Positions 1 through 59,750 of a DNA stretch of 64,000 nt are shown here, piece after piece. Origin of the DNA: Ectobius pallidus. Its lineage: Eukaryota; Arthropoda; Insecta; Blattodea; Ectobiidae. The stretch spans positions 155,109,269-155,173,268 of the forward strand of contig CAXKWD010000007.1 in the NCBI GenBank assembly GCA_964059195.1, written 5' to 3'. The position numbers were made by a program, and so were the translations under genes. The notes beneath the pieces were generated by a model that ran no database searches, was not told where the DNA came from, and saw nothing but the letters and a program-made list of their open reading frames with translations. Within the stretch, counting starts at the first letter, position 1. Every line of letters starts with the position of its first letter.

Positions 1-32
1 GTAAAGAATATAACAGACTCATTTGTACTCAC

Positions 33-207
33 CGTTTCTCTTGAGGAATATGAATGGCAACATGGTGCCCACTAAGGGGTAATGCTTAGGTCCTGGAATC
101 TGAGCCATTTGCCTGGCGAGCTCTTTCCTCTTGCTATTTCCTCTGAACAGAAAGAGTATAGCCACTACTAGCAGGGCTCCAGCGAGCAATAACGTCATTG
201 GATCCAT
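33..207 (-). CDS. CYP4 family cytochrome P450, first coding exon only (gene A, partial)
   Basis: Microsomal P450 monooxygenase, N-terminal part. The ATG at 207 opens a 58-residue stretch: a hydrophobic signal-anchor (about residues 4-21), a basic stop-transfer patch (RGNSKRK) and the proline hinge (PGPKHYP, from residue 38), followed by LVGTMLPFIFLKRN, as in CYP4 enzymes. The exon ends at a consensus donor (AACG then GTGAGT), leaving phase 1. The same intron position and phase occur in the complete CYP4 gene at 27106-53578, so the two are tandem paralogues in the same orientation. An upstream in-frame ATG at 255 would add 16 residues, but the anchor begins better at MDPMT. Later exons lie outside the window to the left. 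Substrate cannot be told from this exon. Confidence 0.85.
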
Positions 208-495
208 CTCTCCTGTAATAATAATTAGGGCTGTACCGATTAATCGATTAAACATTTAATCGTCGATCAATTACATTTTCCGATTAATCGGTTTAGTCGA
301 ATTCTGACAAACGTTTTTCGAGAAATGGGTCAAATGACCAAACTCCTTTCTCTCGCTTCTCCGGCCTTGGCACACCATCGTCTCTTGAACATTCAAATGT
401 CAACAAACCCGTGTGTCTCAAGTCTTGGCTGAAAAAGTAACCGGAAATGTAGGCTAAGTTTTGTATATATGAGAATATTATAGGAGAAAAATTCC

Positions 496-567
496 TCCGA
501 CACTGGGACTTGAACCCAGGACCTTTGGCTATTCGCGCCAATGCTCTACCAACTGAGCTAAGCCTAT
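496..567 (-). repeat. tRNA-like head of the foldback SINE (inverted copy)
   Basis: The reverse complement contains the D arm GCTC/GAGC, anticodon arm TTGGC/GCCAA and T arm CTGGG/CCCAG with T loop TTCAAGT. The last bases of the 5' acceptor side are replaced by the SINE tail sequence, so it is not a functional tRNA gene. Confidence 0.6.
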
Positions 568-792
568 AATATTCTCATGTAATGTCTAACAGAGACAATA
601 ATCTGTGGTTCATGAAAGCTTATATATCTATCTTGAATGTCAACTGTACAATAACAGTGGGAGCCCGGTCACAAAATCACTAATTAGTGTGCCTCACTGT
701 ACTGCATATGACATAACTTGTCTGTCTGTGAGGTAGACCATTAGGGCAATCAGTCATGGGAGAGAGGTTCCATCCGGCGCTGTGAATTCAAC

Positions 793-864
793 TCCGGCTT
801 AGCTCAGTTGGTAGAGCATTGGCGCGAATAGCCAAAGGTCCTGGGTTCAAGTCCCAGTGTCGGA
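793..864 (+). repeat. tRNA-like head of the foldback SINE
   Basis: A 72-nt cloverleaf can be drawn: acceptor pairs at 6 of 7 positions, D stem GCTC/GAGC, anticodon stem TTGGC/GCCAA, five-base variable loop and T stem CTGGG/CCCAG. The anticodon loop GCGAATA puts GAA at positions 34-36, but position 33 is C instead of the near-universal U. It sits inside a mobile repeat, so I call it a SINE promoter region and not a tRNA gene. Confidence 0.65.
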
Positions 865-1168
865 GGAATTTTTCTCCTATAATATTCTCATGTAATGTCT
901 AACAGAGACAATAATCTGTGGTTCATGAAAGCTTATATATCTATTTTGTATATATGTTTTCACTAGTTAACCAATAATGTTATTAATTAATTCAGGATTT
1001 TTTAAAATTATCTGTTGTGTAGGAGTTATTAAACGTGTAAAACAATGTTAAATGTGCACTTTGGTTTCGTTTAAAATACCAACCTGTTTGTCGATTAATT
1101 AGTCGATTAATCGATTAAAGTCAAGCGTTAACTCGATTAGAAATTTTAATCGATTTTCAGCCCAAATA

Positions 1169-1480
1169 GTAATAATAATAAAATCAGGTAATTTGATCAA
1201 ATAAAGTGTCAGGTGGAGTTAATAGACCATTTATTTCAGCCTTTTTTTTTTTTTTTTTTTAGTTTTAGACCACGGTTTCTTGATAGAGTTTGTTCACCAT
1301 ATGTGAAGGAATAACCAGAATATTAACAGAATGAATGTACAACAAATTCCTCAAACATCCCTTTATTTTTGCCAAAACATCTGAAGGCGTACAAATACGG
1401 AGTCACTTGTCTTTAGTTCCACACAGCGTATTCAGTACGATTAATTTATGCAAATTTGCTATTTAAAAAGCAATATATTG
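1169..1480. other. Non-coding spacer between gene A flank and viral element
   Basis: AT-rich sequence with a T tract at about 1242-1260. No ORF or recognisable repeat. The last bases, 1473-1480 (ATATATTG), recur just before the central terminal repeat at 7593-7600, so they may belong to the viral terminus and not to the host. Confidence 0.4.
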
Positions 1481-1600
1481 TATATCGGCCGGTTTCGCGA
1501 CCTGTTGGCGTCGTGGGCCCGGCCTGACTTTTTTCGTGAAATCGGCTTGTCGCGAAGGACGCTTGGCAATGTTCCCGGATTTGCTCTGTGCTATATAAAC
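1481..1600 (+). repeat. Terminal repeat, outer left (unit 1)
   Basis: The 120 bp are repeated at 7601-7720 with two mismatches, and inverted at 13590-13709. Internal inverted motifs (TTCGCGAC at 1494-1501 with GTCGCGAA at 1549-1556; GGCCGG at 1487 with CCGGCC at 1519) suggest it can fold, as parvovirus and bidnavirus termini do. The inner end carries a TATA box. Confidence 0.85.
1592..1598 (+). promoter_or_regulatory. TATA box of the left NS/capsid promoter
   Basis: TATATAA inside the terminal repeat, 39 bp before the ATG at 1631. Transcription starting about 30 bp downstream would give a leader of only about 10 nt. Identical boxes occur in the other three terminal repeats. Confidence 0.7.
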
Positions 1601-1630
1601 GAGAAAATTTTCACTTTCCGATACATTGTC

Positions 1631-2074
1631 ATGTCGGCGCTATCAACACCGTCTGCCTGGCTAGTTCAATCGACGGATACCACCGAATTGCCCACGGAGG
1701 ACCTCTACATCCTATTGACGGGCATATTCGTATCCGGAAACGCCAAGTTCGAACGTCGAGACGACTCCATTGTCTTACGCCTAACGTACTCCATTAAATT
1801 GGAGAATCTTTTGGAGAAGTTTGGGGAGTACCAGGACCTGCTTCGAGTGGTACCCGTCAGCCCGCACCACTCCGAGGACCAGTCACGACGATTTCTGGAG
1901 CTGATCTCCAAACGCAGAGTATATCCCACCAATTCTCCGGAGAGGCATCAACCTGGCAGCAGTAACACCCAGCACGGTCCCGGAAGCAGTACGGCCTTCG
2001 CAGAGGAGGACGTCAGGGGATTTCGTCTCGGCACCCCAAAAAGGTTCAGATCTTTTAAGTCATTTGATAAATAA
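1631..2074 (+). CDS. Bidnavirus-like small non-structural ORF (NS2-like position), unit 1
   Basis: 147 residues, function not recognised. The open frame extends up to 1448, across the terminal repeat, but the ATG at 1631 lies just after the TATA box at 1592 and is the first that a transcript from it would contain. The first about 100 residues look folded (MSALSTPSAWLV, several hydrophobic segments, LENLLEKFGEYQDLL). The C-terminal third is rich in S, P, G and R and looks disordered. By position it corresponds to ORF1/NS2 of bidnavirus VD1. Its end overlaps the helicase frame (+1 frame) by about 170 nt of open reading frame, so it could also supply the N-terminal part of a spliced or frameshifted NS1. 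The copy at 13113-13559 has one extra Asn. Confidence 0.65.
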   Translation: MSALSTPSAWLVQSTDTTELPTEDLYILLTGIFVSGNAKFERRDDSIVLRLTYSIKLENLLEKFGEYQDLLRVVPVSPHHSEDQSRRFLELISKRRVYPTNSPERHQPGSSNTQHGPGSSTAFAEEDVRGFRLGTPKRFRSFKSFDK

Positions 2075-2825
2075 ATATAAGGCAACGTCTTACACGGCGT
2101 TGCTCGATCGTTGTACACCTGTAGAATGGGATTCTGTTTTAAATAAATACCAGAGTAACTCTTTGTTGACTAATAATATCAATATCTCCATATCCAGTTA
2201 CATTAAGCGTAGACTTCAATTAGAAAGAGAAGACAGGTTTGGTTATTTATTAGATTGTGCTAAAAATGGGACCAGCCACAGCAGAAATGCAATTAGTGAA
2301 CTGTTTATTAGAAATCATATTGTTCCTACTCGTTTTGTTAGCGACCTTGAGAAAATACTTAATGGTAAGGAAACGAAGATCAATTGCCTCTTCCTCCTCG
2401 GACCATCCAATGCAGGAAAGAGTTTTATAGCCCAGTCTATTGCGTCACATTTTGTGACGGGTTATGCCTCATGTGCAAATAGCATGTCCGAATTCACTTA
2501 CGAAAATTTCCTAAATAAATCCTTGATATTGTTGGAGGAACCATTTGTAACAGAGGCGACGTGCGACGATATGAAAAATATTTTGGCTGGAGCCGCTTTA
2601 CAAGTAGGCAAAAAATACATGAATAAACAGGACCTGTTCCGCACCCCTGTCATAATGACCGGCAATCACGAGAAACTAGGTAAAGGATATTTGAGTCCTA
2701 GAGACGAGGAAGCACTACGTAATAGACTAATTGTGTATGAACTCCGTGAACCCTTCACCCCTTCTGTGTATATTACGCCAGAACAGTTTGCTGATTGGGT
2801 TTTGTTTATCTACAGGGACATATAA
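2064..2825 (+). CDS. NS1-like superfamily 3 helicase, unit 1
   Basis: 253 residues counted from a TTG codon. SF3 ATPase/helicase, expected to unwind viral DNA during replication in the nucleus. Motifs: Walker A GPSNAGKS (113-120), Walker B LILLEE (154-159), motif C PVIMTGNHE (195-203), and a downstream RNRLIVYEL segment (219-227). These match parvoviral NS1 ATPases. The N-terminal HUH nuclease of parvoviral NS1 is absent, as in bidnaviruses, where PolB replaces rolling-hairpin initiation. The frame is open from 1905 but contains no ATG before residue 141, which lies beyond Walker A. The start is therefore unknown: splicing, frameshifting from the upstream ORF or a non-AUG codon are possible. 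The stop TAA (2823-2825) overlaps the next ATG. The mirror copy differs at residue 6 (K/R). Confidence 0.85.
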   Translation: MINKYKATSYTALLDRCTPVEWDSVLNKYQSNSLLTNNINISISSYIKRRLQLEREDRFGYLLDCAKNGTSHSRNAISELFIRNHIVPTRFVSDLEKILNGKETKINCLFLLGPSNAGKSFIAQSIASHFVTGYASCANSMSEFTYENFLNKSLILLEEPFVTEATCDDMKNILAGAALQVGKKYMNKQDLFRTPVIMTGNHEKLGKGYLSPRDEEALRNRLIVYELREPFTPSVYITPEQFADWVLFIYRDI

Positions 2826-4213
2826 TGTTACGTAGTGGTGGCACCATGTCCCGTAAGAGGGCGCGGACAATGAGCAACCCCATAGATACACCACCCCCTA
2901 CATGGCATTCCGAAGAGGATGAAGAGGACGTCGTGGACAGTCCTCGAGCGATACGAGCCGTTGCAGGCAGCAGCGGTGGAACGGGAAATTCAGGACAACA
3001 TGGAATACCACCAGGGGAGAGCGTGTCACCTGTGCCGCGACCTCTACCGTATAAACATGTGACATTCACATTTATACAGAGATCGTGGGAGGAAATAGAC
3101 ACTTCCCTAAGTACACTGCCCATCACCATTGCGCTGTACCCCGTGCTGGACGATGAGATGTTGAAAGTGATAAAACAAGTGCTTCCGTGTTGTCTGGGAT
3201 ATCGTATACACAAACCTCATGTTAAGCTTAGCAATTTCATCATACTTACAGACGAAATGCAGGTGAGGGCAAACACGCCAACAGAAATGTCTTCCTTTGT
3301 ACAACAAAGTAAGATCATTCACTACATGCCAAAGAACTTTGTAACTACTGGTTATACGTTATCCAATAAAAATGAGATAGCAGCAATAAAATACGGTGAT
3401 TTGGTGGGACATAACAGACGAAATCAAATGGTGAAATTGCCTAACACTGACGATTTCGAAACAGTTAGCATATATGGCATAAGCACTAATATTCACGGTA
3501 ATCTCGTGAATAGAAATAAAATGTATGAGGGGTATGTTTTAAATGCTCTGGAATCCCAACATTATGAACTGTTGGCGGCTGCTAACACCGCCGAGGATCT
3601 TAAATGGGAGAGTCTATCCTATGCCTACGGCATAGTAGACGAAAAAGGGGATTCTACTAAAGTAGAAAGTACCTGGTCTATTGATAAGAGGGCCATATCG
3701 AAATGTAGGAATTTGGATAAGATTGAAATTGTGGGTGCCTCCGACGTAATAGAGTACGACGTGGAGACCAACATAGAGGGAGATGTCCTGTATCCCGATA
3801 CCCCGGACGGGTTTACACCCTCTCCTTTTTCGTATTTTATGGTAAAAGGCACAGAAAAAACCACCAGTCAAACGCTGTGGAAAGTGGGCTTTACGCCATG
3901 GCCAAGTACGTTTAATCCTAAAATGTATCGTAAAAACGCCGCATTGGGCGATCAATGGCTCCAGGCAAAATACAATCCCATACAACACCATTTTTTCACC
4001 ATGGTTCCAATACATAAATCTAATGGAACACTGATGAAACAACGGGCATCTTGTATGGTGGAACAGAGTTTCCAGGTATCATTTATATTTCGTGATGAGG
4101 AAATTTCTGCTATGGCCCCCTTGGAAATGGCGCATATGCGCGCACGGGGATGTTTGAGGTCAGGAGTTCAGGATTACAATAATGCCAAAACAACACTACC
4201 ATTTTTAACATAA
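2825..4213 (+). CDS. Bidnavirus/parvovirus-like capsid protein candidate, unit 1
   Basis: 462 residues (about 52 kDa). I chose the first ATG at 2825; a longer open frame from 2795 begins with TTG inside the helicase. The ATG overlaps the helicase stop as TAATG, suggesting coupled reinitiation. The N terminus is basic (MSRKRAR, a nuclear-signal-like patch), then acidic (SEEDEEDVVDS), then Gly/Ser/Pro-rich linker to about residue 75. The rest is beta-rich in appearance. No phospholipase A2 motif is seen. Assignment as VP rests on position (VD1 ORF3), size and lack of any enzyme motif. An AATAAA follows at 4231. The mirror copy differs by one residue (D/E in the N-terminal PIDTPPP stretch). Confidence 0.7.
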   Translation: MLRSGGTMSRKRARTMSNPIDTPPPTWHSEEDEEDVVDSPRAIRAVAGSSGGTGNSGQHGIPPGESVSPVPRPLPYKHVTFTFIQRSWEEIDTSLSTLPITIALYPVLDDEMLKVIKQVLPCCLGYRIHKPHVKLSNFIILTDEMQVRANTPTEMSSFVQQSKIIHYMPKNFVTTGYTLSNKNEIAAIKYGDLVGHNRRNQMVKLPNTDDFETVSIYGISTNIHGNLVNRNKMYEGYVLNALESQHYELLAAANTAEDLKWESLSYAYGIVDEKGDSTKVESTWSIDKRAISKCRNLDKIEIVGASDVIEYDVETNIEGDVLYPDTPDGFTPSPFSYFMVKGTEKTTSQTLWKVGFTPWPSTFNPKMYRKNAALGDQWLQAKYNPIQHHFFTMVPIHKSNGTLMKQRASCMVEQSFQVSFIFRDEEISAMAPLEMAHMRARGCLRSGVQDYNNAKTTLPFLT

Positions 4214-4285
4214 ATTGTATTTTATTGTGTAATAAAGCTTTCATATGTACATAACCATGTTTGTTATTTATTTATTTATTTATTT
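4214..4285. terminator. Convergent polyadenylation region, unit 1
   Basis: The plus strand has AATAAA at 4231-4236, 18 bp after the capsid stop. The minus strand has AATAAA (TTTATT on plus) at 4221-4226 and within the (TTTA)n run at 4267-4285, overlapping the PolB stop. The two transcripts would overlap tail to tail. This copy has 12 bp more TTTA repeat than its mirror. Confidence 0.7.
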
Positions 4286-7200
4286 GTACTTCTGTCCTTC
4301 GTAACCATGAGGTAATGTTCCGATCCTATCCTCCATCACTTGCCGTTTTCTATCCTCCGAAACAAGCGCCAACTTGCGTTGGCGAACGCTATACAGGGTG
4401 TGGTTTTGTGAGCGGATAAGATACTGCTGTACATACAGCGATTGGTTCTCAAACAAACACCGTTTGTAGTCGTCAAAAGTTATACGACCTCGACTCGCAT
4501 CTACGATTGCGGTTTCGGTGATTCCTTTGTTTTTCATCAAGGAATCGCCGTCATCGAACCGTAGGGCATAAGTCTTGGCTCTGAGGCCTACAAACTCCAG
4601 TATCTGTCTGTGACCGGTTTCGTCCGCCCACAAACCAGGCACTTTATCTGTATCTTTGGTGCGAATTACGTAATCGTCTGGAGCCTTTTCAAAATCAAGG
4701 TAACGCAACAAGTCCGGCTCAGAGGCCATTGTTTTTAGAGGGTGGGTTTCGCAATTGTGAAAATGCATAATAAGAGAATCGGTATCGTGGTACAACAGAT
4801 TTAACTTGTCACCAAATTTGGTCTTCAGACTATAATAAAACCGGTACACCTCTAGTTTAGCCAGTTCCAAAATGGTAAACCCGATCTGTACCGGTTTGTT
4901 CAGGAGCACCTTTGTATTGTTAAGTTCGCACAGAAAATGCCCGTCCACTTCGAGGAAATTATTTACCTGTGCCAGAAAAGCATTGCGACGACCGTGCATA
5001 CCTGCCTCGGTCGCTTTTTTAACAACAAATTTCTTATATCGGAAGGTATTTTCGACAGTCTTGCCGAAGAGACTATTATTCATTAGCTTATAGGTGTTGG
5101 ACAAGGGCTTGTTATCTCTGTGTACCTGTCTATTGCTTACATTACCCTGCACATAATCGTGCAGTATGGGCGCTTGTTCGAAGATCCACACGTTGTGAAC
5201 CTTTTCCACTTTCAAACCCATCCGTATGTAATATTTTAAATTTTCGCTATGCAATAGATACCGATTCTTTGGTAAAAAGGTCGTACATAATCTGTTATCG
5301 TAATGGTGAGGGGCGAGTGGAAACTCGACGTCGCGATCGTGCAGTTCATTGGGATAGGTTATGTCCACTAAGGCCAGGAAGCAATGCTTGTCGGTGGGCG
5401 ACCAGCTTTCGAAGTCTGGCGGTAGGTCAGGTCTGTTGCAAACCAGTTCGCAAGGCAGGCTGCCCAGCATCACTTTCGCATATAATGCATTCACATCGAG
5501 ATACAATATATGATCTGTCTCGACGTTCTCGACCTTGGCATAACGTCTTATGCACTGAGAAACCCCGCCCCGGATCTGATTTTGAATTAAAGTGTATAAG
5601 AATTTTTCTCTTACGACTTTGAAATTTGTGGGGCTGTGCTTCAGGACCAGCTGCCAGGTAAATGCCGGCGCACCCTGGAAATACACGGGGTCTGTTCGGT
5701 ATGCAGAATATGCGTTTTTTCGAAACAGTTCAAATATGTCTGCCAGCAACAAAACGTCCAGCCGAAGGTAATAGTTATGGTAATCTTCAAATTTAGCAAA
5801 CCCCTTTTCTTGCCATATCGACATAGCGCGGTTTTTATCTTGCATTGCATCATGTAAATGGGAGTACCAAGCATCATCGGTGTTAGGTAGGGGATGGTTT
5901 AATTTAATTTTACTGTCAAACCATTCGTAAGGGAATGGAGCTTTTTCCTTAGCGTCGGATGGTGCGTATTTAAAATCCGTAACCGTTGTGGTTAATTGTG
6001 CCAGTGAGGAGCTTAGGTAGTTAAAAGTATCCAGGAATCGAACCCGGTTCCTCACGTTATCGACGCTTACAACGTCGAACTTTTCAAAATTTTTACCGGA
6101 AATTTTAACGTCGGTACCGAACCGGTGGATTAAATTCCTTATTATGTGATGACTGTCGTAGCCTCGGAAATTATGAAAATATATTGGGCACGTATTTTCG
6201 GGCACCAACCAACATCTTATGTGATATGAGCCGGGACGGCCGTCAATGTAATTTTTCCGACCCGAAATACGTTCGTCCGTCGCGTTCAATTTAACGCCAC
6301 AGATTCCGCATTTCGGGGTTTCAATGCCAAAAGCGCATGACCAATCGTAAACATAGTTGATTATGTCCTCAATGAAAGCTTCGGCCACGTCGTTACAATC
6401 ATTAAGCGATTGCAGACCTTCCTTAATTATCTCACCATTGTATACCGCGACCCAACCGTACCCGGACGGGATGTGTTGCTGCTGGTCTCGTTCTATGTAC
6501 GATTCAAAGTCTGCATAACAAACAAGCCCATGCATGCAGTCTGGTTTGGCCCGAGGGCGTACAGTGTTGTCCTCGTCTGGCCCTATTGATACAACCTCCA
6601 CTTCGCATTTATTGGGGACATGATACTTAAGACAATGTTCGCAAAAATGCCGGACTTCGCGGGTCCTATCATTTAAAAAGGCATCCAATTTTATTATTAA
6701 TTTGTATTTGCGAATTCCGCAATAATACAGATTTATATATTCCCTGTTACCGGGATCGCACCGTTTTTGATACAGAACATTACCTCTGTCATTGAAGATG
6801 CGAAGATTGAATCTCGCTGCCGTCTTATGCCAGGCCGGTAGCTCGGAGATGTGGACGCGAGCTGCATTCTTTTCGTGCGGCGTCGCCTCCCGTCGTAACC
6901 ATGCACGCACCTTCCTCCGACGCTGGTTGAGGTTGTCCCCGGGTCTTCTGGTATGGTGAAGAGCAATGCACCCAATCAGCGTGTCGGAGGTCTTTGTAAT
7001 TACGACGTCGGTGACGCCGCCGTCTACTTCGTCCACATCCATCACCTCATATTCCGAAGTCAGGACGTTTCTCGATGTCGGGACCGCAGTATTGTTGGGC
7101 TGGCACGGTGCAATCTTGAACCACCACCGGTCAATGCTGATAAATGCCATGCCTGACCCCGCTGCATCTGGATATTCGTCGGGGTCGGTAAGCTTTTCGA

Positions 7201-7444
7201 ACACCTCCCCGAAAAAGTCTTGGATTTGAAGTTCGTCAATGTCCAACAGCGTACTGACGGAGACCGGAATGTGCAGGAGGATCTCTTCGCCGTCCCTGAT
7301 GAATAAAGCCGATGTGTGGATTACTAATTTTATAGTTTTTTCAATTTCTAAAAATGCCAAAATAAAGTTCACTGCATCGTCGTAGGAGGTGGTGGTCCAG
7401 TAGCCTGCAGCTGGTTGAGTATCTGACCTCAATACGTGAGCCAT
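4280..7444 (-). CDS. Protein-primed family B DNA polymerase (bidnavirus/Polinton type), unit 1
   Basis: 1054 residues, full length. Replicates linear DNA from a protein primer and proofreads with a 3'-5' exonuclease. Exo I: D312, E314 (ADFES). Exo II: FHNFRGYD (423-430). Exo III: Y559 to D563. Palm motif A: D650 with LY 654-655. Motif B: KLMNNSLFGK (786-795). Motif C: YHDTDS (885-890), holding the catalytic D887 and D889. KxY: K957, Y959. All catalytic residues are present. The first about 260 residues are family-specific; in bidnaviruses this part has been suggested to include the terminal protein. Two Cys/His clusters, C268-C271-H275-C280 and C379-C382 with H408-C411, may bind zinc. ATG at 7444 lies 37 bp after the minus-strand TATA box. 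The mirror copy differs at about five residues (340, 363, 474, 600, 741). Confidence 0.95.
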   Translation of the reverse strand: MAHVLRSDTQPAAGYWTTTSYDDAVNFILAFLEIEKTIKLVIHTSALFIRDGEEILLHIPVSVSTLLDIDELQIQDFFGEVFEKLTDPDEYPDAAGSGMAFISIDRWWFKIAPCQPNNTAVPTSRNVLTSEYEVMDVDEVDGGVTDVVITKTSDTLIGCIALHHTRRPGDNLNQRRRKVRAWLRREATPHEKNAARVHISELPAWHKTAARFNLRIFNDRGNVLYQKRCDPGNREYINLYYCGIRKYKLIIKLDAFLNDRTREVRHFCEHCLKYHVPNKCEVEVVSIGPDEDNTVRPRAKPDCMHGLVCYADFESYIERDQQQHIPSGYGWVAVYNGEIIKEGLQSLNDCNDVAEAFIEDIINYVYDWSCAFGIETPKCGICGVKLNATDERISGRKNYIDGRPGSYHIRCWLVPENTCPIYFHNFRGYDSHHIIRNLIHRFGTDVKISGKNFEKFDVVSVDNVRNRVRFLDTFNYLSSSLAQLTTTVTDFKYAPSDAKEKAPFPYEWFDSKIKLNHPLPNTDDAWYSHLHDAMQDKNRAMSIWQEKGFAKFEDYHNYYLRLDVLLLADIFELFRKNAYSAYRTDPVYFQGAPAFTWQLVLKHSPTNFKVVREKFLYTLIQNQIRGGVSQCIRRYAKVENVETDHILYLDVNALYAKVMLGSLPCELVCNRPDLPPDFESWSPTDKHCFLALVDITYPNELHDRDVEFPLAPHHYDNRLCTTFLPKNRYLLHSENLKYYIRMGLKVEKVHNVWIFEQAPILHDYVQGNVSNRQVHRDNKPLSNTYKLMNNSLFGKTVENTFRYKKFVVKKATEAGMHGRRNAFLAQVNNFLEVDGHFLCELNNTKVLLNKPVQIGFTILELAKLEVYRFYYSLKTKFGDKLNLLYHDTDSLIMHFHNCETHPLKTMASEPDLLRYLDFEKAPDDYVIRTKDTDKVPGLWADETGHRQILEFVGLRAKTYALRFDDGDSLMKNKGITETAIVDASRGRITFDDYKRCLFENQSLYVQQYLIRSQNHTLYSVRQRKLALVSEDRKRQVMEDRIGTLPHGYEGQKYK

Positions 7445-7478
7445 TTTTGCGACTATGCATTTTACAACAACTGCATCG

Positions 7479-7576
7479 GTTTATATAGCACAATGCAAAT
7501 CCGGGAACATTGCCAAGCGTTCTTCGCGACAAGCCGATTTCACGAAAAAAGTCAGGCCGGGCCCACGACGCCAACA
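7479..7576 (-). repeat. Terminal repeat, inner, unit 1 (truncated outer end)
   Basis: Reverse complement of the inner 98 bp of the terminal repeat. The outermost about 22 bp are missing and replaced by the 24-bp spacer at 7577-7600. One base differs from the other copies (GTTCTTCGCG instead of GTCCTTCGCG). Confidence 0.8.
7481..7487 (-). promoter_or_regulatory. TATA box of PolB promoter, unit 1
   Basis: TATATAA on the minus strand within the terminal repeat, ending 37 bp before the PolB ATG at 7444. The predicted leader is very short. Confidence 0.7.
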
Positions 7577-7600
7577 CGACGACTACAATAATATATATTG
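7577..7600. other. Central junction spacer of the dimer
   Basis: 24 bp (cgacgactacaataatatat and attg) between the truncated inner repeat of unit 1 and the complete terminus of unit 2. Its last eight bases equal 1473-1480 at the left outer end, so part may be viral terminal sequence. Confidence 0.6.
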
Positions 7601-7720
7601 TATATCGGCCGGTTTCGCGACCTGTTGGCGTCGTGGGCCCGGCCTGACTTTTTTCGTGAAATCGGCTTGTCGCGAAGGACGCTTGGCAATGTTCCCGGAT
7701 TTGCATTGTGCTATATAAAC
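7601..7720 (+). repeat. Terminal repeat, inner, unit 2
   Basis: Matches 1481-1600 except for two adjacent bases near 7705 (CAT versus CTC). It is complete, unlike its partner at 7479-7576. Confidence 0.85.
7712..7718 (+). promoter_or_regulatory. TATA box of PolB promoter, unit 2
   Basis: TATATAA, 43 bp (start to start) before the ATG at 7755. Mirror of 7481-7487. Confidence 0.7.
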
Positions 7721-7754
7721 CGATGCAGTTGTTGTAAAATGCATAGTCGCAAAA

Positions 7755-10700
7755 ATGGCTCACGTATTGAGGTCAGATACTCAACCAGCTGCAGGCTACT
7801 GGACCACCACCTCCTACGACGATGCAGTGAACTTTATTTTGGCATTTTTAGAAATTGAAAAAACTATAAAATTAGTAATCCACACATCGGCTTTATTCAT
7901 CAGGGACGGCGAAGAGATCCTCCTGCACATTCCGGTCTCCGTCAGTACGCTGTTGGACATTGACGAACTTCAAATCCAAGACTTTTTCGGGGAGGTGTTC
8001 GAAAAGCTTACCGACCCCGACGAATATCCAGATGCAGCGGGGTCAGGCATGGCATTTATCAGCATTGACCGGTGGTGGTTCAAGATTGCACCGTGCCAGC
8101 CCAACAATACTGCGGTCCCGACATCGAGAAACGTCCTGACTTCGGAATATGAGGTGATGGATGTGGACGAAGTAGACGGCGGCGTCACCGACGTCGTAAT
8201 TACAAAGACCTCCGACACGCTGATTGGGTGCATTGCTCTTCACCATACCAGAAGACCCGGGGACAACCTCAACCAGCGTCGGAGGAAGGTGCGTGCATGG
8301 TTACGACGGGAGGCGACGCCGCACGAAAAGAATGCAGCTCGCGTCCACATCTCCGAGCTACCGGCCTGGCATAAGACGGCAGCGAGATTCAATCTTCGCA
8401 TCTTCAATGACAGAGGTAATGTTCTGTATCAAAAACGGTGCGATCCCGGTAACAGGGAATATATAAATCTGTATTATTGCGGAATTCGCAAATACAAATT
8501 AATAATAAAATTGGATGCCTTTTTAAATGATAGGACCCGCGAAGTCCGGCATTTTTGCGAACATTGTCTTAAGTATCATGTCCCCAATAAATGCGAAGTG
8601 GAGGTTGTATCAATAGGGCCAGACGAGGACAACACTGTACGCCCTCGGGCCAAACCAGACTGCATGCATGGGCTTGTTTGTTATGCAGACTTTGAATCGT
8701 ACATAGAACGAGACCAGCAGCAACACATCCCGTCCGGGTACGGTTGGGTCGCGGTATACAATGGTGAGATAGTTAAGGAGGGTCTGCAATCGCTTAATGA
8801 TTGTAACGACGTGGCCGAAGCTTTCATTGAGGATATCATCGGCTATGTTTACGATTGGTCATGCGCTTTTGGCATTGAAACACCGAAATGCGGAATCTGT
8901 GGCGTTAAATTGAACGCGACGGACGAACGCATTTCGGGTCGGAAAAATTACATAGACGGCCGTCCCGGCTCATATCACATAAGATGTTGGTTGGTGCCCG
9001 AAAATACGTGCCCAATATATTTTCATAATTTTCGAGGCTACGACAGTCATCACATAATAAGGAATTTAATCCACCGGTTCGGTACCGACGTTAAAATTTC
9101 CGGTAAAAATTTTGAAAAGTTCGACGTTGTAAGCGTCGATAACGTGAGGAACCGGGTTCGATTCCTGGATACTTATAACTACCTAAGCTCCTCACTGGCA
9201 CAATTAACCACAACGGTTACGGATTTTAAATACGCACCATCCGACGCTAAGGAAAAAGCTCCATTCCCTTACGAATGGTTTGACAGTAAAATTAAATTAA
9301 ACCACCCCCTACCTAACACCGATGATGCTTGGTACTCCCATTTACATGATGCAATGCAAGATAAAAACCGCGCTATGTCGATATGGCAAGAAAAGGGGTT
9401 TGCTAAATTTGAAGATTACCATAACTATTACCTTCGGCTGGACGTGTTGTTGCTGGCAGACATATTCGAACTCTTTCGAAAAAACGCATATTCTGCATAC
9501 CGAACAGATCCCGTGTATTTCCAGGGTGCGCCGGCATTTACCTGGCAACTGGCCCTGAAGCACAGCCCCACAAATTTCAAAGTCGTAAGAGAAAAATTCT
9601 TATACACTTTAATTCAAAATCAGATCCGGGGCGGGGTTTCTCAGTGCATAAGACGTTATGCCAAGGTCGAGAACGTCGAGACAGATCATATATTGTATCT
9701 CGATGTGAATGCATTATATGCGAAAGTGATGCTGGGCAGTCTGCCTTGCGAACTGGTTTGCAACAGACCTGACCTACCTCCAGACTTCGAAAGCTGGTCG
9801 CCCACCGACAAGCATTGCTTCCTGGCCTTAGTGGACATAACCTATCCCAATGAACTGCACGATCGCGACGTCGAGTTCCCACTCGCCCCTCACCATTACG
9901 ATAACAGATTATGTACGACCTTTTTACCAAAGAATCGGTATCTATTGCATAGCGAAAATTTAAAATATTACATACAGATGGGCTTGAAAGTGGAAAAGGT
10001 TCACAACGTGTGGATCTTCGAACAAGCGCCCATACTGCACGATTATGTGCAGGGTAATGTAAGCAATAGACAGGTCCACAGAGATAACAAGCCCTTGTCC
10101 AACACCTATAAGCTAATGAATAATAGTCTCTTCGGCAAGACTGTCGAAAATACCTTCCGATATAAGAAATTTGTTGTTAAAAAAGCGACCGAGGCAGGTA
10201 TGCACGGTCGTCGCAATGCTTTTCTCGCACAGGTAAATAATTTCCTCGAAGTGGACGGGCATTTTCTGTGCGAACTTAACAATACAAAGGTGCTCCTGAA
10301 CAAACCGGTACAGATCGGGTTTACCATTTTGGAACTGGCTAAACTAGAGGTGTACCGGTTTTATTATAGTCTGAAGACCAAATTTGGTGACAAGTTAAAT
10401 CTGTTGTACCACGATACCGATTCTCTTATTATGCATTTTCACAATTGCGAAACCCACCCTCTAAAAACAATGGCCTCCGAGCCGGACTTGTTGCGTTACC
10501 TTGATTTTGAAAAGGCTCCAGACGATTACGTAATTCGCACCAAAGATACAGATAAAGTGCCTGGTTTGTGGGCGGACGAAACCGGTCACAGACAGATACT
10601 GGAGTTTGTAGGCCTCAGAGCCAAGACTTATGCCCTACGGTTCGATGACGGCGATTCCTTGATGAAAAACAAAGGAATCACCGAAACCGCAATCGTAGAT

Positions 10701-10919
10701 GCGAGTCGAGGTCGTATAACCTTTGACGACTACAAACGGTGTTTGTTTGAGAACCAATCGCTGTATGTACAGCAGTATCTTATCCGCTCACAAAACCACA
10801 CCCTGTATAGCGTTCGCCAACGCAAGTTGGCGCTTGTTTCGGAGGATAGAAAACGGCAAGTGATGGAGGATAGGATCGGAACATTACCTCATGGTTACGA
10901 AGGACAGAAGTACAAATAA
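7755..10919 (+). CDS. Protein-primed family B DNA polymerase (bidnavirus/Polinton type), unit 2
   Basis: 1054 residues, no stops or frameshifts. Same domain order and intact exonuclease and polymerase motifs as the copy at 4280-7444: Exo I DFE at 312-314, Exo II FHN at 423-425, motif A D650, motif B from K786, motif C YHDTDS 885-890, KxY 957-959. I found five differences: residues 340 (V for I), 363 (G for N), 474 (Y for F), 600 (A for V) and 741 (Q for R), none in a catalytic motif. Transcribed rightward from the inner terminal repeat and convergent with the unit 2 capsid gene. AATAAA overlaps the stop at 10915-10920. Confidence 0.95.
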   Translation: MAHVLRSDTQPAAGYWTTTSYDDAVNFILAFLEIEKTIKLVIHTSALFIRDGEEILLHIPVSVSTLLDIDELQIQDFFGEVFEKLTDPDEYPDAAGSGMAFISIDRWWFKIAPCQPNNTAVPTSRNVLTSEYEVMDVDEVDGGVTDVVITKTSDTLIGCIALHHTRRPGDNLNQRRRKVRAWLRREATPHEKNAARVHISELPAWHKTAARFNLRIFNDRGNVLYQKRCDPGNREYINLYYCGIRKYKLIIKLDAFLNDRTREVRHFCEHCLKYHVPNKCEVEVVSIGPDEDNTVRPRAKPDCMHGLVCYADFESYIERDQQQHIPSGYGWVAVYNGEIVKEGLQSLNDCNDVAEAFIEDIIGYVYDWSCAFGIETPKCGICGVKLNATDERISGRKNYIDGRPGSYHIRCWLVPENTCPIYFHNFRGYDSHHIIRNLIHRFGTDVKISGKNFEKFDVVSVDNVRNRVRFLDTYNYLSSSLAQLTTTVTDFKYAPSDAKEKAPFPYEWFDSKIKLNHPLPNTDDAWYSHLHDAMQDKNRAMSIWQEKGFAKFEDYHNYYLRLDVLLLADIFELFRKNAYSAYRTDPVYFQGAPAFTWQLALKHSPTNFKVVREKFLYTLIQNQIRGGVSQCIRRYAKVENVETDHILYLDVNALYAKVMLGSLPCELVCNRPDLPPDFESWSPTDKHCFLALVDITYPNELHDRDVEFPLAPHHYDNRLCTTFLPKNRYLLHSENLKYYIQMGLKVEKVHNVWIFEQAPILHDYVQGNVSNRQVHRDNKPLSNTYKLMNNSLFGKTVENTFRYKKFVVKKATEAGMHGRRNAFLAQVNNFLEVDGHFLCELNNTKVLLNKPVQIGFTILELAKLEVYRFYYSLKTKFGDKLNLLYHDTDSLIMHFHNCETHPLKTMASEPDLLRYLDFEKAPDDYVIRTKDTDKVPGLWADETGHRQILEFVGLRAKTYALRFDDGDSLMKNKGITETAIVDASRGRITFDDYKRCLFENQSLYVQQYLIRSQNHTLYSVRQRKLALVSEDRKRQVMEDRIGTLPHGYEGQKYK

Positions 10920-10973
10920 ATAACAAACATGGTTATGTACATATGAAAGCTTTATTACACAATAAAATACAAA
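10915..10973. terminator. Convergent polyadenylation region, unit 2
   Basis: Plus-strand AATAAA at 10915-10920 and 10961-10966 serve PolB. Minus-strand AATAAA (TTTATT at 10951-10956) serves the capsid transcript. The TTTA run is 12 bp shorter than in unit 1. Confidence 0.7.
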
Positions 10974-12362
10974 TTATGTTAAAAATGGTAGTGTTGTTTT
11001 GGCATTATTGTAATCCTGAACTCCTGACCTCAAACATCCCCGTGCGCGCATATGCGCCATTTCCAAGGGGGCCATAGCAGAAATTTCCTCATCACGAAAT
11101 ATAAATGATACCTGGAAACTCTGTTCCACCATACAAGATGCCCGTTGTTTCATCAGTGTTCCATTAGATTTATGTATTGGAACCATGGTGAAAAAATGGT
11201 GTTGTATGGGATTGTATTTTGCCTGGAGCCATTGATCGCCCAATGCGGCGTTTTTACGATACATTTTAGGATTAAACGTGCTTGGCCATGGCGTAAAGCC
11301 CACTTTCCACAGCGTTTGACTGGTGGTTTTTTCTGTGCCTTTTACCATAAAATACGAAAAAGGAGAGGGTGTAAACCCGTCCGGGGTATCGGGATACAGG
11401 ACATCTCCCTCTATGTTGGTCTCCACGTCGTACTCTATTACGTCGGAGGCACCCACAATTTCAATCTTATCCAAATTCCTACATTTCGATATGGCCCTCT
11501 TATCAATAGACCAGGTACTTTCTACTTTAGTAGAATCCCCTTTTTCGTCTACTATGCCGTAGGCATAGGATAGACTCTCCCATTTAAGATCCTCGGCGGT
11601 GTTAGCAGCCGCCAACAGTTCATAATGTTGGGATTCCAGAGCATTTAAAACATACCCCTCATACATTTTATTTCTATTCACGAGATTACCGTGAATATTA
11701 GTGCTTATGCCATATATGCTAACGGTTTCGAAATCGTCAGTGTTAGGCAATTTCACCATTTGATTTCGTCTGTTATGTCCCACCAAATCACCGTATTTTA
11801 TTGCTGCTATCTCATTTTTATTGGATAACGTATAACCAGTAGTTACAAAGTTCTTTGGCATGTAGTGAATGATCTTACTTTGTTGTACAAAGGAAGACAT
11901 TTCTGTTGGCGTGTTTGCCCTCACCTGCATTTCGTCTGTAAGTATGATGAAATTGCTAAGCTTAACATGAGGTTTGTGTATACGATATCCCAGACAACAC
12001 GGGAGCACTTGTTTTATCACTTTCAACATCTCATCGTCCAGCACGGGGTACAGCGCAATGGTGATGGGCAGTGTACTTAGGGAAGTGTCTATTTCCTCCC
12101 ACGATCTCTGTATAAATGTGAATGTCACATGTTTATACGGTAGAGGTCGCGGCACAGGTGACACGCTCTCCCCTGGTGGTATTCCATGTTGTCCTGAATT
12201 TCCCGTTCCACCGCTGCTGCCTGCAACGGCTCGTATCGCTCGAGGACTGTCCACGACGTCCTCTTCATCCTCTTCGGAATGCCATGTAGGGGGTGGTGTT
12301 TCTATGGGGTTGCTCATTGTCCGCGCCCTCTTACGGGACATGGTGCCACCACTACGTAACAT
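10974..12362 (-). CDS. Bidnavirus/parvovirus-like capsid protein candidate, unit 2
   Basis: 462 residues from the ATG at 12362, which again overlaps the helicase stop as TAATG. Differs from the unit 1 copy at a single visible residue (E for D in the N-terminal tail). Basic then acidic then Gly/Ser-rich N terminus, followed by a beta-rich body. VP identity is inferred from synteny with VD1; no sequence signature proves it. Confidence 0.7.
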   Translation of the reverse strand: MLRSGGTMSRKRARTMSNPIETPPPTWHSEEDEEDVVDSPRAIRAVAGSSGGTGNSGQHGIPPGESVSPVPRPLPYKHVTFTFIQRSWEEIDTSLSTLPITIALYPVLDDEMLKVIKQVLPCCLGYRIHKPHVKLSNFIILTDEMQVRANTPTEMSSFVQQSKIIHYMPKNFVTTGYTLSNKNEIAAIKYGDLVGHNRRNQMVKLPNTDDFETVSIYGISTNIHGNLVNRNKMYEGYVLNALESQHYELLAAANTAEDLKWESLSYAYGIVDEKGDSTKVESTWSIDKRAISKCRNLDKIEIVGASDVIEYDVETNIEGDVLYPDTPDGFTPSPFSYFMVKGTEKTTSQTLWKVGFTPWPSTFNPKMYRKNAALGDQWLQAKYNPIQHHFFTMVPIHKSNGTLMKQRASCMVEQSFQVSFIFRDEEISAMAPLEMAHMRARGCLRSGVQDYNNAKTTLPFLT

Positions 12363-13123
12363 TATATGTCCCTGTAGATAAACAAAACCCAATCAGCAAA
12401 CTGTTCTGGCGTAATATACACAGAAGGGGTGAAGGGTTCACGGAGTTCATACACAATTAGTCTATTACGTAGTGCTTCCTCGTCTCTAGGACTCAAATAT
12501 CCTTTACCTAGTTTCTCGTGATTGCCGGTCATTATGACAGGGGTGCGGAACAGGTCCTGTTTATTCATGTATTTTTTGCCTACTTGTAAAGCGGCTCCAG
12601 CCAAAATATTTTTCATATCGTCGCACGTCGCCTCTGTTACAAATGGTTCCTCCAACAATATCAAGGATTTATTTAGGAAATTTTCGTAAGTGAATTCGGA
12701 CATGCTATTTGCACATGAGGCATAACCCGTCACAAAATGTGACGCAATAGACTGGGCTATAAAACTCTTTCCTGCATTGGATGGTCCGAGGAGGAAGAGG
12801 CAATTGATCTTCGTTTCCTTACCATTAAGTATTTTCTCAAGGTCGCTAACAAAACGAGTAGGAACAATATGATTTCTAATAAACAGTTCACTAATTGCAT
12901 TTCTGCTGTGGCTGGTCCCATTTTTAGCACAATCTAATAAATAACCAAACCTGTCTTCTCTTTCTAATTGAAGTCTACGCTTAATGTAACTGGATATGGA
13001 GATATTGATATTATTAGTCAACAAAGAGTTACTCTGGTATTTATTTAAAACAGAATCCCATTCTACAGGTGTACAACGATCGAGCAACGCCGTGTAAGAC
13101 GTTGCCCTATATTTATTTATCAA
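12362..13123 (-). CDS. NS1-like superfamily 3 helicase, unit 2
   Basis: 253 residues from a TTG codon; the frame is open up to about 13282 without an ATG. Walker A GPSNAGKS (113-120), Walker B (154-159) and motif C (195-203) are intact. The single difference from unit 1 is R for K at residue 6. The shared absence of an AUG in both arms shows it is a property of the virus, not a decay mutation. Confidence 0.85.
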   Translation of the reverse strand: MINKYRATSYTALLDRCTPVEWDSVLNKYQSNSLLTNNINISISSYIKRRLQLEREDRFGYLLDCAKNGTSHSRNAISELFIRNHIVPTRFVSDLEKILNGKETKINCLFLLGPSNAGKSFIAQSIASHFVTGYASCANSMSEFTYENFLNKSLILLEEPFVTEATCDDMKNILAGAALQVGKKYMNKQDLFRTPVIMTGNHEKLGKGYLSPRDEEALRNRLIVYELREPFTPSVYITPEQFADWVLFIYRDI

Positions 13124-13559
13124 ATGACTTAAAAGATCTGAACCTTTTTGGGGTGCCGAGACGAAATCCCCTGACGTCCTCCTCTGCGAAGGCCGTACTG
13201 CTTCCGGGACCGTGCTGGGTGTTACTGCTGCCAGGTTGATGCCTCTCCGGAGAATTGGTGGGATATACTCTGCGTTTGGAGATCAGCTCCAGAAATCGTC
13301 GTGACTGGTCCTCGGAGTGGTGCGGGCTGACGGGTACCACTCGAAGCAGGTCCTGGTACTCCCCAAACTTCTCCAAAAGATTCTCCAATTTAATGGAGTA
13401 CGTTAGGCGTAAAACAATGGAGTCGTTGTCTCGACGTTCGAACTTGGCGTTTCCGGATACGAATATGCCCGTCAATAGGATGTAGAGGTCCTCCGTGGGC
13501 AATTCGGTGGTATCCGTCGATTGAACTAGCCAGGCAGATGGTGTTGATAGCGCCGACAT
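13113..13559 (-). CDS. Bidnavirus-like small non-structural ORF, unit 2
   Basis: 148 residues from the ATG at 13559, just downstream of the TATA box at 13592-13598. Identical to the unit 1 copy except for an inserted Asn codon (RRDNDS instead of RRDDS). Function unknown. The C-terminal part is Ser/Pro/Gly/Arg-rich and likely disordered. Confidence 0.65.
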   Translation of the reverse strand: MSALSTPSAWLVQSTDTTELPTEDLYILLTGIFVSGNAKFERRDNDSIVLRLTYSIKLENLLEKFGEYQDLLRVVPVSPHHSEDQSRRFLELISKRRVYPTNSPERHQPGSSNTQHGPGSSTAFAEEDVRGFRLGTPKRFRSFKSFDK

Positions 13560-13589
13560 GACAATGTATCGGAAAGTGAAAATTTTCTC

Positions 13590-13709
13590 GTTTATATAGC
13601 ACAGAGCAAATCCGGGAACATTGCCAAGCGTCCTTCGCGACAAGCCGATTTCACGAAAAAAGTCAGGCCGGGCCCACGACGCCAACAGGTCGCGAAACCG
13701 GCCGATATA
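13590..13709 (-). repeat. Terminal repeat, outer right (unit 2)
   Basis: Exact inverse of the repeat at 1481-1600, including the CTC variant shared only by the two outer repeats. Inverted identity ends at 13709. Flanking TATTTAA at 13711-13717 is also found at 1460-1466, a possible target duplication. Confidence 0.85.
13592..13598 (-). promoter_or_regulatory. TATA box of the right NS/capsid promoter
   Basis: TATATAA on the minus strand, mirror of 1592-1598, just ahead of the ATG at 13559. Confidence 0.7.
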
Positions 13710-13719
13710 TTATTTAATC

Positions 13720-13850
13720 GCTACTCCGGTAACGGCCAACCGATTTGGTCCAAAATCAATAGGGTTCTTCCTATGGACTGTATAAGTGTGTATAGTAAGT
13801 TTATTGAAAATCTGATAAAGCGCAATTTCCTCAAACCCCCCGAAGACATT
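13720..13850 (-). repeat. Fragment of the dispersed tandem-repeat family
   Basis: Contains, in reverse, the words of the tandem array at 21900-22690 (accgatttggtccaaaatca, then a stretch ending in a TTTATCAGATTTTCAATAAAC-like block). Related pieces lie at 18740-18900 and 63190-63300. It abuts the right end of the viral element, so the virus may have landed in this repeat. Confidence 0.55.
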
Positions 13851-27105: not shown

Positions 27106-27449
27106 TCAGCTTGTTCGTGGCGTCACTGTGATTCTGATGCCATTCTCTGGCCGGAGTACAAGTTCGCTGATGATCCTGATGTCTTCCCTCTTGTCCAAGG
27201 AAGTTATCTTGAAATTCCTCAGCAGGCTGGAAAGCACTGACTTCTCCTCTAGAAGCGCGAATTTTTGCCCTATGCAGTTCCTGGGCCCTGCGCTGAAGGG
27301 CACGTATGCGAAGGGATGGCGGTTGACTACATTCTCGGGCAGGAACCTGTCGGGGTCGAACTTATCGGGGTCCGGGTAGATTTCCGGGTTTCTATGTATG
27401 AAATAGAAGTGCAGAGAGATTGTGCAGCCTTCGGGTATCGTATAGTTAT
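27106..27449 (-). CDS. CYP4 gene B exon 10
   Basis: Residues 393-506 and stop. Holds the FDPDRF motif and the haem-binding loop with C451. Acceptor TTACAG at 27450-27455. Confidence 0.93.
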
Positions 27450-58689: not shown

Positions 58690-59750
58690 CTTACTTACTC
58701 ACTCAATGGCAATAGACAATTCCTCAGCAAGCTAAAAAAATATTATCTATTTTATAGAACCCGAAGGTTCATTGCCGCGCTTACCTGAGCCCGCCATTCA
58801 ACCCTATTCTGTTCTAACTCTATCCAATCATCCCTCGCAAATCCTACTTCCCTTAAATCTATCCTAATATTGTACTCCCACCTACGTCTAGGTCTTCCAA
58901 GTGGTCTTTTCCCTTCGGGTTTCCCAGTCAATATTTTTTAGATATGTCTTTCCTCCCCCATACGCGCAACATGTCCAGCACATTTCATCCTCCGTGATTT
59001 AATTATCCTTACTATATCCGGTGAAGCTCGTCGTTATGCAGTTTTCTCCAGTCCCCATTTTCATCTTTCTTAGGCCAAAATATTTTCCTAAGCACCCTGT
59101 TTTGGAACACTCTCGGATTAGGTTCTTCCCGAAGAGTAAGCGACCGTGTCTCACATCCAATAATACAACCGGCAGGATAATAGTCTTATAAATCTTTATT
59201 TTTAGATTTCTGGCCAGAAGACAGGAAGATAAGAGGTTCTGAATTGCATGAAAACAGATTTGAGTCTACAGTTAACTTCTGCCTTAATATTATTTGTGTC
59301 TGTAATTACTGTTCCCAGATATTTCCACTTGTTCGAACGATTTACCGGCTATTCTAATATTTTGTAGAGCATTATTTTGACATTTCATGACCATATTCTT
59401 AATTTTTTCTGTATTAATTTCCATTCCAACATGCCTGCAGGCATCGAAAAGACTTTCTGCATTTCTCTCGATTCTGTTTATGACGTCGCCCAACAAGCAA
59501 ACGTCTTCTGCATAAGCTAAAATCGGGTGACTGCCATTTAATTCTAGGCCTACCTTATTTTCCTGAACTTTCCTAATGGCATATTCCAAAGCGAAATTAA
59601 AAAGTAAAGTCGATAGTGCATCTCCTTGCTTCAAGCCGCTTCTAATGGCAAAACTATCTTATATAAATTTCCCTACCCTCACTCTGCTATAGGCTTCATT
59701 TAGACACATTTTGATAAGTCTAACTATCTTCTTTGGTATCCCAAACTCAA
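58690..59750 (-). mobile_element. 5'-truncated LINE with part of the reverse transcriptase domain
   Basis: Minus strand 59634-59290 encodes MKQGDALSTLLFNFALEYAI and a degenerate catalytic box AYAEDV where YADD is expected. Further 3' are broken post-RT pieces and the same 3' UTR as at 54234-54895. Inactive. Confidence 0.75.

What the first reader, a model, noticed from the sequence alone, without database searches (positions are those of the whole stretch)
1481..13709. Complete, ORF-intact bidnavirus-like genome fixed in an insect genome as a 12.2-kb inverted dimer
Seen: two mirror-image units, each with a small ORF, SF3 helicase, capsid-like ORF and convergent protein-primed PolB, bounded by 120-bp terminal repeats. 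All eight ORFs are open and all PolB catalytic motifs are present. Known: bidnavirus VD1 has this gene order, and replication of linear DNA with inverted termini can give head-to-head dimers. Inference: a dimeric replicative intermediate integrated, and recently, or the arms are kept alike by gene conversion. I know of no described endogenous bidnavirus in this form.
Basis: partly seen in the sequence, partly recalled or inferred. Interest (0 to 1): 0.93.

Follow-up and report, generated by a model that had tools for sequence, protein, structure and literature searches.

The report
Recently amplified endogenous bidnavirus-like DNA virus
Two mirror-image copies of a small bidnavirus-like DNA virus sit in a chromosome, probably an insect's, and are only one of dozens of nearly identical or broken insertions in that genome, which likely entered the germline repeatedly and recently as linear viral DNA joined end to end.

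Summary
The inverted pair is real: two ~6.1-kb units meet at their PolB ends, all eight frames are open, and host DNA lies on both sides. It is not a single fossil. The 2.12-Gb genome gave 51 PolB matches, 11 of them full length without a stop, and 42 terminal-repeat matches. PolB is of the protein-primed type and groups with 'bidna-class' viruses, with a 58% relative as sister. The unit has an SF3 helicase, no recognised integrase or nickase, and a VP whose fold could not be confirmed. Most copies end at one TA-rich tip without a consistent target duplication. Alleles shared between copies are mostly synonymous (25 vs 5), private ones less so (32 vs 37), as if copies descend through functional replication and relax afterwards. 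The arms here belong to different sublineages: the left shares 15 alleles with another copy alone. One folded molecule is therefore not the simplest account of this locus. A second PolB-to-PolB dimer and five other element-element joints suggest that linear viral DNAs, whole and broken, are repeatedly joined and integrated. Apparently integrated bidna-class sequences are in print for fungi; my searches found no report of a recently amplified family in an animal genome.

The parts
1473..1600 (+). Terminal repeat, NS-side end of left unit (TATA box at 1592-1599 pointing inward)
   Evidence: BLAST boundary of 12 of 19 NS-side pieces of other copies within 2 nt of 1473
1631..2074 (+). ORF1 of left unit, 147 aa, no recognised domain
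1905..2825 (+). SF3 helicase frame of left unit (stop to stop; no ATG before Walker A)
   Evidence: Pfam Parvo_NS1 1.2e-16 on 2064-2822; AAV Rep chains 2.4e-9 to 5.9e-9
2825..4213 (+). VP-like ORF of left unit, 462 aa, glycine-rich N-terminus
   Evidence: fold not confirmed
4280..7444 (-). Protein-primed-type PolB of left unit, 1054 aa
   Evidence: PF03175 1.8e-27; model pLDDT 82.4, phi29 polymerase top PDB match
4478..6427 (.). Patch holding 27 of 36 core arm-arm substitutions
   Evidence: 0 of 20000 random placements; 14 of the 15 alleles that the left arm shares with C6:62.44M alone are in PolB
7479..7581 (-). Terminal repeat, PolB-side end of left unit; outer tip atypical
7582..7617 (.). 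Centre: 7-bp palindrome around the TA-rich tip with an unequal bubble
   Evidence: z -2.78
7593..7720 (+). Terminal repeat, PolB-side end of right unit (TATA box 7712-7719)
7755..10919 (+). PolB of right unit, 1054 aa
   Evidence: 0.06% from the copy at C6:54.7M
10974..12362 (-). VP-like ORF of right unit
12362..13282 (-). SF3 helicase frame of right unit
13113..13559 (-). ORF1 of right unit, 148 aa (one codon longer than left)
13590..13709 (-). Terminal repeat, NS-side end of right unit (outermost bases missing)
28..209 (-). Host: probable first exon of a cytochrome P450 gene (motif recalled)
   Evidence: Frame read; no Pfam match on its own
13722..13822 (+). Host: repeat with further copies at 21.9-22.7 kb and 18.8 kb of the window
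27109..29519 (-). Host: P450 exons (29142-29519 and 27109-27483)
   Evidence: Pfam p450 1.6e-27 and 3.5e-36

Best explanation
The locus is two nearly complete units of a bidnavirus-like linear DNA virus family joined tail to tail in a chromosome, and they likely got there when replicating viral DNA molecules of two sublineages were joined end to end and captured by host end-joining. The family is predicted to replicate outside the chromosome with its own protein-primed PolB and SF3 helicase from its terminal repeats, whose TA-rich tips vary in length as sliding-back initiation would leave them. Shown: dozens of insertions, one common terminus in most, no consistent target duplication, joints between elements, and few nonsynonymous changes among alleles shared by copies. 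Inferred: extrachromosomal replication, the need for the VP (hence a particle stage), joining before integration, and repeated germline entry.
For: Copies: 51 PolB matches, 11 spanning residues 1-1054 without a stop; 42 terminal-repeat matches; nine PolB copies differ by 0.03-0.38%. Ends, by BLAST boundary: 15 of 20 PolB-side pieces within 4 nt of one coordinate, 12 of 19 NS-side pieces within 2 nt. No match of 6 nt or more between the two flanks in 7 of 7 copies. One copy (C5:154.16M) carries similar extra 7-nt tip units at both ends, as copying of one terminal repeat from the other would give. Selection, 12 copies: shared alleles 25 synonymous and 5 nonsynonymous, singletons 32 and 37 (Fisher p 7.7e-4). 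Joints: C7 and C1 dimers, two places on C6, C4, C7:16.32M and C2:142.69M. The arms belong to different sublineages; two four-gamete pairs (carriers) point to recombination. PolB fold: phi29 polymerase top in PDB, densovirus-labelled and bidnavirus-like polymerases high in BFVD.
Against: No reads, RNA or population data: infection, transcription and polymorphism are untested. In 3 of 7 copies the flanks share 4-5 nt in AT-rich or repeated sequence, against 22 of 200 mismatched pairs with 4 nt or more, so a short AT-rich duplication is not excluded. Shared VP alleles are few (3 synonymous, 1 nonsynonymous), and the VP of C278 is broken and shows no constraint (dN/dS 1.01). Twelve of the 25 shared synonymous alleles come from the one pair left arm and C6:62.44M (without it 13 and 2, counted). 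In C1 the arms share two exclusive alleles, which fits a one-molecule dimer there, and the palindrome at the window's centre is what a fold-back at the tip would leave.
Confidence: 0.57

Rival explanations
1. A single viral molecule folded back at its PolB-side tip during protein-primed replication, giving a palindromic dimer that integrated; recombination then introduced the differing patch into the left arm.
For: The centre is a 7-bp palindrome at the terminal tip; a second PolB-to-PolB dimer exists (C1), whose arms differ at 1 of 3162 PolB sites and share two exclusive alleles. Recombination between copies is likely. The right arm has only one private allele, so the lack of alleles exclusive to the window's arms has little power.
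Against: The window's arms differ in ORF1, NS1 and VP as well as PolB; the left inner tip is not the mirror of the right one. The C1 arms also differ by a 3-nt indel and 8 substitutions in ORF1, NS1 and VP.
Confidence: 0.2
2. It is a transposon-like element that amplifies inside the germline from chromosomal copies without a particle stage; the VP is a leftover.
For: Insertions of several ages on many contigs, uniform termini, short flank matches in 3 of 7 copies, and other endogenous lineages of the same kind in this genome.
Against: No integrase or transposase was recognised. VP is free of stops and gaps in 10 of 15 rows and its shared alleles are mostly synonymous (small numbers). Joints between broken copies look like end-joining.
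Confidence: 0.22
3. Sequential insertion: the right unit landed beside an already truncated left unit, with a few bases of other DNA between them.
For: The left inner tip is atypical while the right inner tip is canonical; elements do sit inside or beside other copies at C4 and C6.
Against: The centre keeps a 7-bp palindrome at the tip; a second tail-to-tail dimer exists.
Confidence: 0.15
4. Assembly artefact: hairpin reads or collapsed viral contigs.
For: Palindromes are known assembly hazards (recalled).
Against: The arms differ at 36 core sites with a codon-position pattern; a second dimer with a different centre sits on another contig of 229 Mb; probable and recognised P450 exons lie on the same strand on either side.
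Confidence: 0.04

Closest known systems
Bidna-class parvoviruses, some apparently monopartite (e.g. False wolf spider monodnaparvovirus, Phylloscopus inornatus densovirus)
   Same: PolB 35-40% identical, 15 of 33 close PolB relatives on contigs of 6.0-6.8 kb; the group is defined by parvovirus-like helicase, VP and PolB
   Different: PolB forms its own two-row branch with a 58% relative, beside the 32-row clade; here the genomes are chromosomal and multicopy. Their ends, gene order and other genes were not examined
Bombyx mori bidensovirus VD1 (Bidnaviridae)
   Same: VD1 encodes NS1, NS2, VP and PolB; stand-alone SF3 helicase, glycine-rich VP N-terminus, terminal repeats without parvovirus-type hairpins
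   Different: Tip is TA-rich, not GTGTGTGT; no second segment with this terminal repeat found; its PolB was not retrieved for the tree
Apparently integrated bidna-class sequences in Lactarius fungi (PMC11071296)
   Same: Bidna-class genes next to host DNA (passages)
   Different: Fungal host; no amplified family or inverted dimer mentioned in the passages read
Polintons/Mavericks and adintoviruses
   Same: Protein-primed PolB, terminal repeats, multicopy in genomes (partly recalled)
   Different: No integrase recognised, about 6 kb, no 6-nt target duplication in 7 of 7 copies

Membership tests
Bidna-class parvoviruses (as defined in PMC11071296) | Parvovirus-like SF3 helicase | tested here: met
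   Pfam Parvo_NS1 1.2e-16
Bidna-class parvoviruses (as defined in PMC11071296) | Alpha-adintovirus-class type B DNA polymerase | tested here: met
   PolB groups with bidna-class viruses and matches them in structure; the alpha class itself was not tested
Bidna-class parvoviruses (as defined in PMC11071296) | Single jelly-roll VP | tested here: inconclusive
   Model pLDDT 34; no Pfam or PDB match
Bidnaviridae (BmBDV) | No rolling-circle nickase domain | tested here: met
   No nickase family among matches of ORF1 and helicase frame
Bidnaviridae (BmBDV) | Terminal repeats that form no parvovirus-type hairpin | tested here: met
   Fold of 1473-1610 no better than shuffles, z -0.91
Bidnaviridae (BmBDV) | Second segment with shared terminal sequence | tested here: inconclusive
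   Six of six terminal repeats lacking a nearby PolB run into ORF1/NS1/VP of the same unit, but only 40 of 66 candidates were scored
Bidnaviridae (BmBDV) | Separately packaged ssDNA genomes | not testable with these tools
   Needs particles
Polinton/Maverick or adintovirus | Retrovirus-like integrase | tested here: not met
   No integrase match in the four ORFs
Polinton/Maverick or adintovirus | 6-bp target-site duplication (length recalled) | tested here: not met
   No flank match of 6 nt or more in 7 of 7 copies; 4-5 nt in 3 of 7
Parvoviridae (classical) | NS1 with N-terminal nickase, and hairpin telomeres | tested here: not met

The most novel reading that the evidence does not exclude
A bidna-class virus has become a long-lived, self-propagating component of an animal genome: an integrase-free, capsid-bearing linear element that replicates by protein priming and seeds new chromosomal copies, singly or as inverted dimers, through host end-joining - a parvovirus-capsid counterpart of the Polintons.
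Probability: 0.35. Interest if true: 0.87.

Novelty: new variant of a known kind. Interest (0 to 1): 0.74.

Why it matters
Most endogenous parvovirus-like sequences are known as broken fragments (recalled). Here many copies of several ages, a good part of them with natural ends and host junctions, lie in one genome. That makes testable how a protein-primed virus without integrase enters chromosomes, whether its capsid is still needed, and whether bidna-class viruses can live like mobile elements. It also shows that a tail-to-tail pair need not be one folded molecule.

Tried and rejected
Searches that led nowhere: PolB, helicase, PolB-alignment and VP-alignment scans of IMG/VR gave no relatives; an 18-base terminal-repeat pattern hit three viral contigs that I did not study. 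The VP fold was unusable. Literature, nine searches: 'monodnaparvovirus'; 'bidnavirus'+'endogenous'; 'bidnavir'+'PolB'+'monopartite'; 'bidnaviridae'+'endogenous viral element'; 'bidensovirus'+'inverted terminal repeat'+'integrat'; 'bidnavir'+'cockroach'; 'densovir'+'endogenous viral'+'tail-to-tail'; 'adintovirus' or 'bidnaparvovirus' (15 of 29 listed); two of 'bidna', 'multicopy', 'endogeniz' (10 of 31 listed). No title or abstract listed told of an amplified endogenous bidna-class family in an animal; most subscription papers are not covered. Rejected: one-off fossil; neutral decay of two identical arms; classical hairpin telomere; the old C3:151.5M pair as a direct dimer (about 2.2 kb of other sequence lies between). 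Not achieved: VP and helicase copy counts, since genome search answered only twice; host identity.

Full report
What is there. The window holds two mirror-image units of about 6.1 kb. Arms 1474-7581 and 7618-13716 match in three pieces at 98-100%, with 36 nt between them. Each unit has ORF1, a helicase frame, a VP-like ORF and, on the other strand, PolB; all eight frames are open. Each of the four terminal repeats carries a TATA box pointing inward (1592, 7480, 7712, 13591), and AATAAA motifs lie between the convergent VP and PolB stops. Both motifs are common in this AT-rich window (31 and 207 matches), so they are suggestive only.

Genes. The helicase matches Parvo_NS1 (1.2e-16) and AAV Rep chains. 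ORF1 and VP match no Pfam family. PolB matches PF03175. Its model (pLDDT 82.4) has phi29 polymerase as top PDB match. In BFVD it has Phylloscopus inornatus densovirus first (TM 0.81), then other densovirus- and parvovirus-labelled entries, with an adintovirus, a Culex bidnavirus-like virus and a Macrobrachium bidensovirus among the first ten. In a 45-row tree PolB pairs with a 58% relative (P0005) beside a 32-row clade of bidna-class viruses, apart from 11 more distant rows, two of them named fungal (quick search, SH-aLRT only). The Bombyx virus and named Polintons were not retrieved. VP has eight relatives at E up to 0.01; three are predicted proteins of the Ischnura, Diploptera and Periplaneta genomes. 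This suggests endogenous relatives in insects and an insect host; the host was not identified.

Host context. A probable P450 first exon lies left of the element (motif recalled, no Pfam match on its own), and P450 exons lie to its right on the same strand. The right flank begins in a host repeat with other copies in the window. The element thus seems to sit between tandem P450 genes.

The arms differ as functional sequences. The arms show 36 core substitutions, a 3-nt indel in ORF1 and a 12-nt indel between genes. In ORF1, VP and PolB together 26 differences are synonymous and 6 codons nonsynonymous, where about 22% synonymous is expected (p 1.5e-12); the helicase frame, which overlaps ORF1, has one nonsynonymous change and was left out of that test. 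27 of the 36 fall in 4478-6427 (0 of 20000 random placements).

A family, not a fossil. The genome of the window (2.12 Gb, 410 contigs) has 51 PolB matches, 11 of which span residues 1-1054 without a stop, and 42 terminal-repeat matches. By position I count these as some three dozen insertion loci; the tool calls its counts lower bounds. Nine PolB copies (right arm, C6:54.7M, C3:163.8M, C9:135.4M, both C1 arms, C4, C5:154.2M, C359) lie within 0.03-0.38% of each other; the left arm, C278 and C6:62.44M differ from these and from each other by 0.70-1.30%. Eight further copies, compared with the left arm alone, differ from it by 0.97-5.0%, and several old or partial matches carry stops. Two divergent lineages in the same genome (PolB 43-56%) carry VP at about 58-65% beside PolB; at a third place (C5:86.6M) no VP was found in the 1.7 kb examined.

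Selection before and after insertion. In 12 copies, alleles carried by two or more copies are 25 synonymous and 5 nonsynonymous (PolB 19/3, VP 3/1, ORF1 3/0, NS1 0/1); singletons are 32 synonymous and 37 nonsynonymous or stop (Fisher p 7.7e-4). So lineages leading to different insertions were constrained, and private changes less so, although singletons too depart from neutrality. Limits: 12 synonymous and 3 nonsynonymous of the shared alleles come from one pair, left arm and C6:62.44M (13 and 2 remain without it); ORF1 and the helicase frame overlap, so some sites count twice; 8 of 20 PolB rows and 3 of 15 rows of the other genes (older, partial or badly broken copies, C278 among them) were left out beforehand. 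Pairwise dN/dS among the twelve youngest PolB rows runs from 0 to 0.28, except pairs of C6:62.44M with the left arm (0.37) and with C278 (0.52); the broken VP of C278 gives 1.01. For VP alone the numbers are small.

Ends and integration. By BLAST boundary, 15 of 20 PolB-side pieces end within 4 nt of one coordinate, one 8 nt inside, three are truncated further in, and one is the centre of the C1 dimer. Of 19 NS-side pieces, 12 reach that coordinate within 2 nt, three are truncated, three have no match in the stretch fetched and one has a repeat in the opposite orientation; the tips of L030, L042 and L045 are irregular on inspection. The tip is a TA-rich stretch of varying length, and one copy has similar extra 7-nt units at both ends. 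In seven copies with both ends the longest shared flank words are 0, 0, 4, 4, 0, 5 and 0 nt; among 200 mismatched draws 22 reach 4 nt or more. The three positives lie in AT-rich or repeated sequence, and one of the seven (C6:54.7M) has another copy, not host, on its NS side. So there is no consistent target duplication, but a short AT-rich one is not excluded.

Joints. Besides the window there is one more PolB-to-PolB dimer, on C1, with a different centre. Other joints: C6:62.44M (a unit cut in PolB joined to the PolB tip of an inverted unit), C4:116.48M (an inverted unit between two pieces of another copy that overlap by about 440 bp), C6:54.71M (a unit followed by a direct NS piece), C7:16.32M and C2:142.69M. 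Six terminal repeats without PolB nearby all lead into the same element. So no second segment was found, though only 40 of 66 candidates were scored.

This locus. The left arm shares 15 alleles with the C6:62.44M copy alone; the right arm is 0.06% from the C6:54.7M copy; no allele is exclusive to the two arms. The last point is weak, because the right arm has only one private allele. In C1 two alleles are exclusive to its arms, although those arms differ by an indel and 8 substitutions in ORF1, NS1 and VP. I therefore read the window as a joint of two sublineages and C1 as a better candidate for a fold-back dimer. The tip palindrome at the window's centre leaves a fold-back followed by recombination open.

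What is known. PMC4061559 (abstract and first part of the Results) gives the traits of the Bombyx virus; PMC11768917 (passages) its gene set; PMC11071296 (passages) says that some bidna-class viruses appear monopartite and reports apparently integrated sequences in Lactarius fungi; PMC8363768 (passages) reports the multi-segment Vesanto virus. PMC10145552, PMC5013282, PMC6950620 and PMC10267136 were seen in passages. Nine searches listed no amplified endogenous family in an animal (calls under Tried and rejected). Verdict: a new variant of a known kind; the gene set is known, while the amplified, recently active chromosomal form is what stands out.

Noticed in passing
window 1905-2825: The helicase frame has no ATG before its Walker A motif (motif recalled), so it needs splicing, a frameshift or a non-ATG start; its stop and the VP ATG share one base.
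   Followed up: no
G000 C9:22.37M and C6:39.60M (L083, L084): Two divergent endogenous lineages of the same kind (PolB 43-56%, VP about 58-65%) in the same genome.
   Followed up: partly
G000 C4:116.47-116.48M (L016, L037, L086, L087): An inverted unit sits between two pieces of another copy that overlap by about 440 bp.
   Followed up: partly
27 copy ends: The base before the TA-rich tip is G in 20, C in 6 and A in 1 of 27; where a tip was found its definition allows only G or C there, so this may be a terminal G or a target preference.
   Followed up: no
window 466-951 and 47768-48393: tRNA-Phe-containing repeat in several orientations, perhaps a tRNA-derived host repeat family.
   Followed up: no
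window 59293-59658: Reverse transcriptase fragment (RVT_1, 1.2e-10).
   Followed up: no
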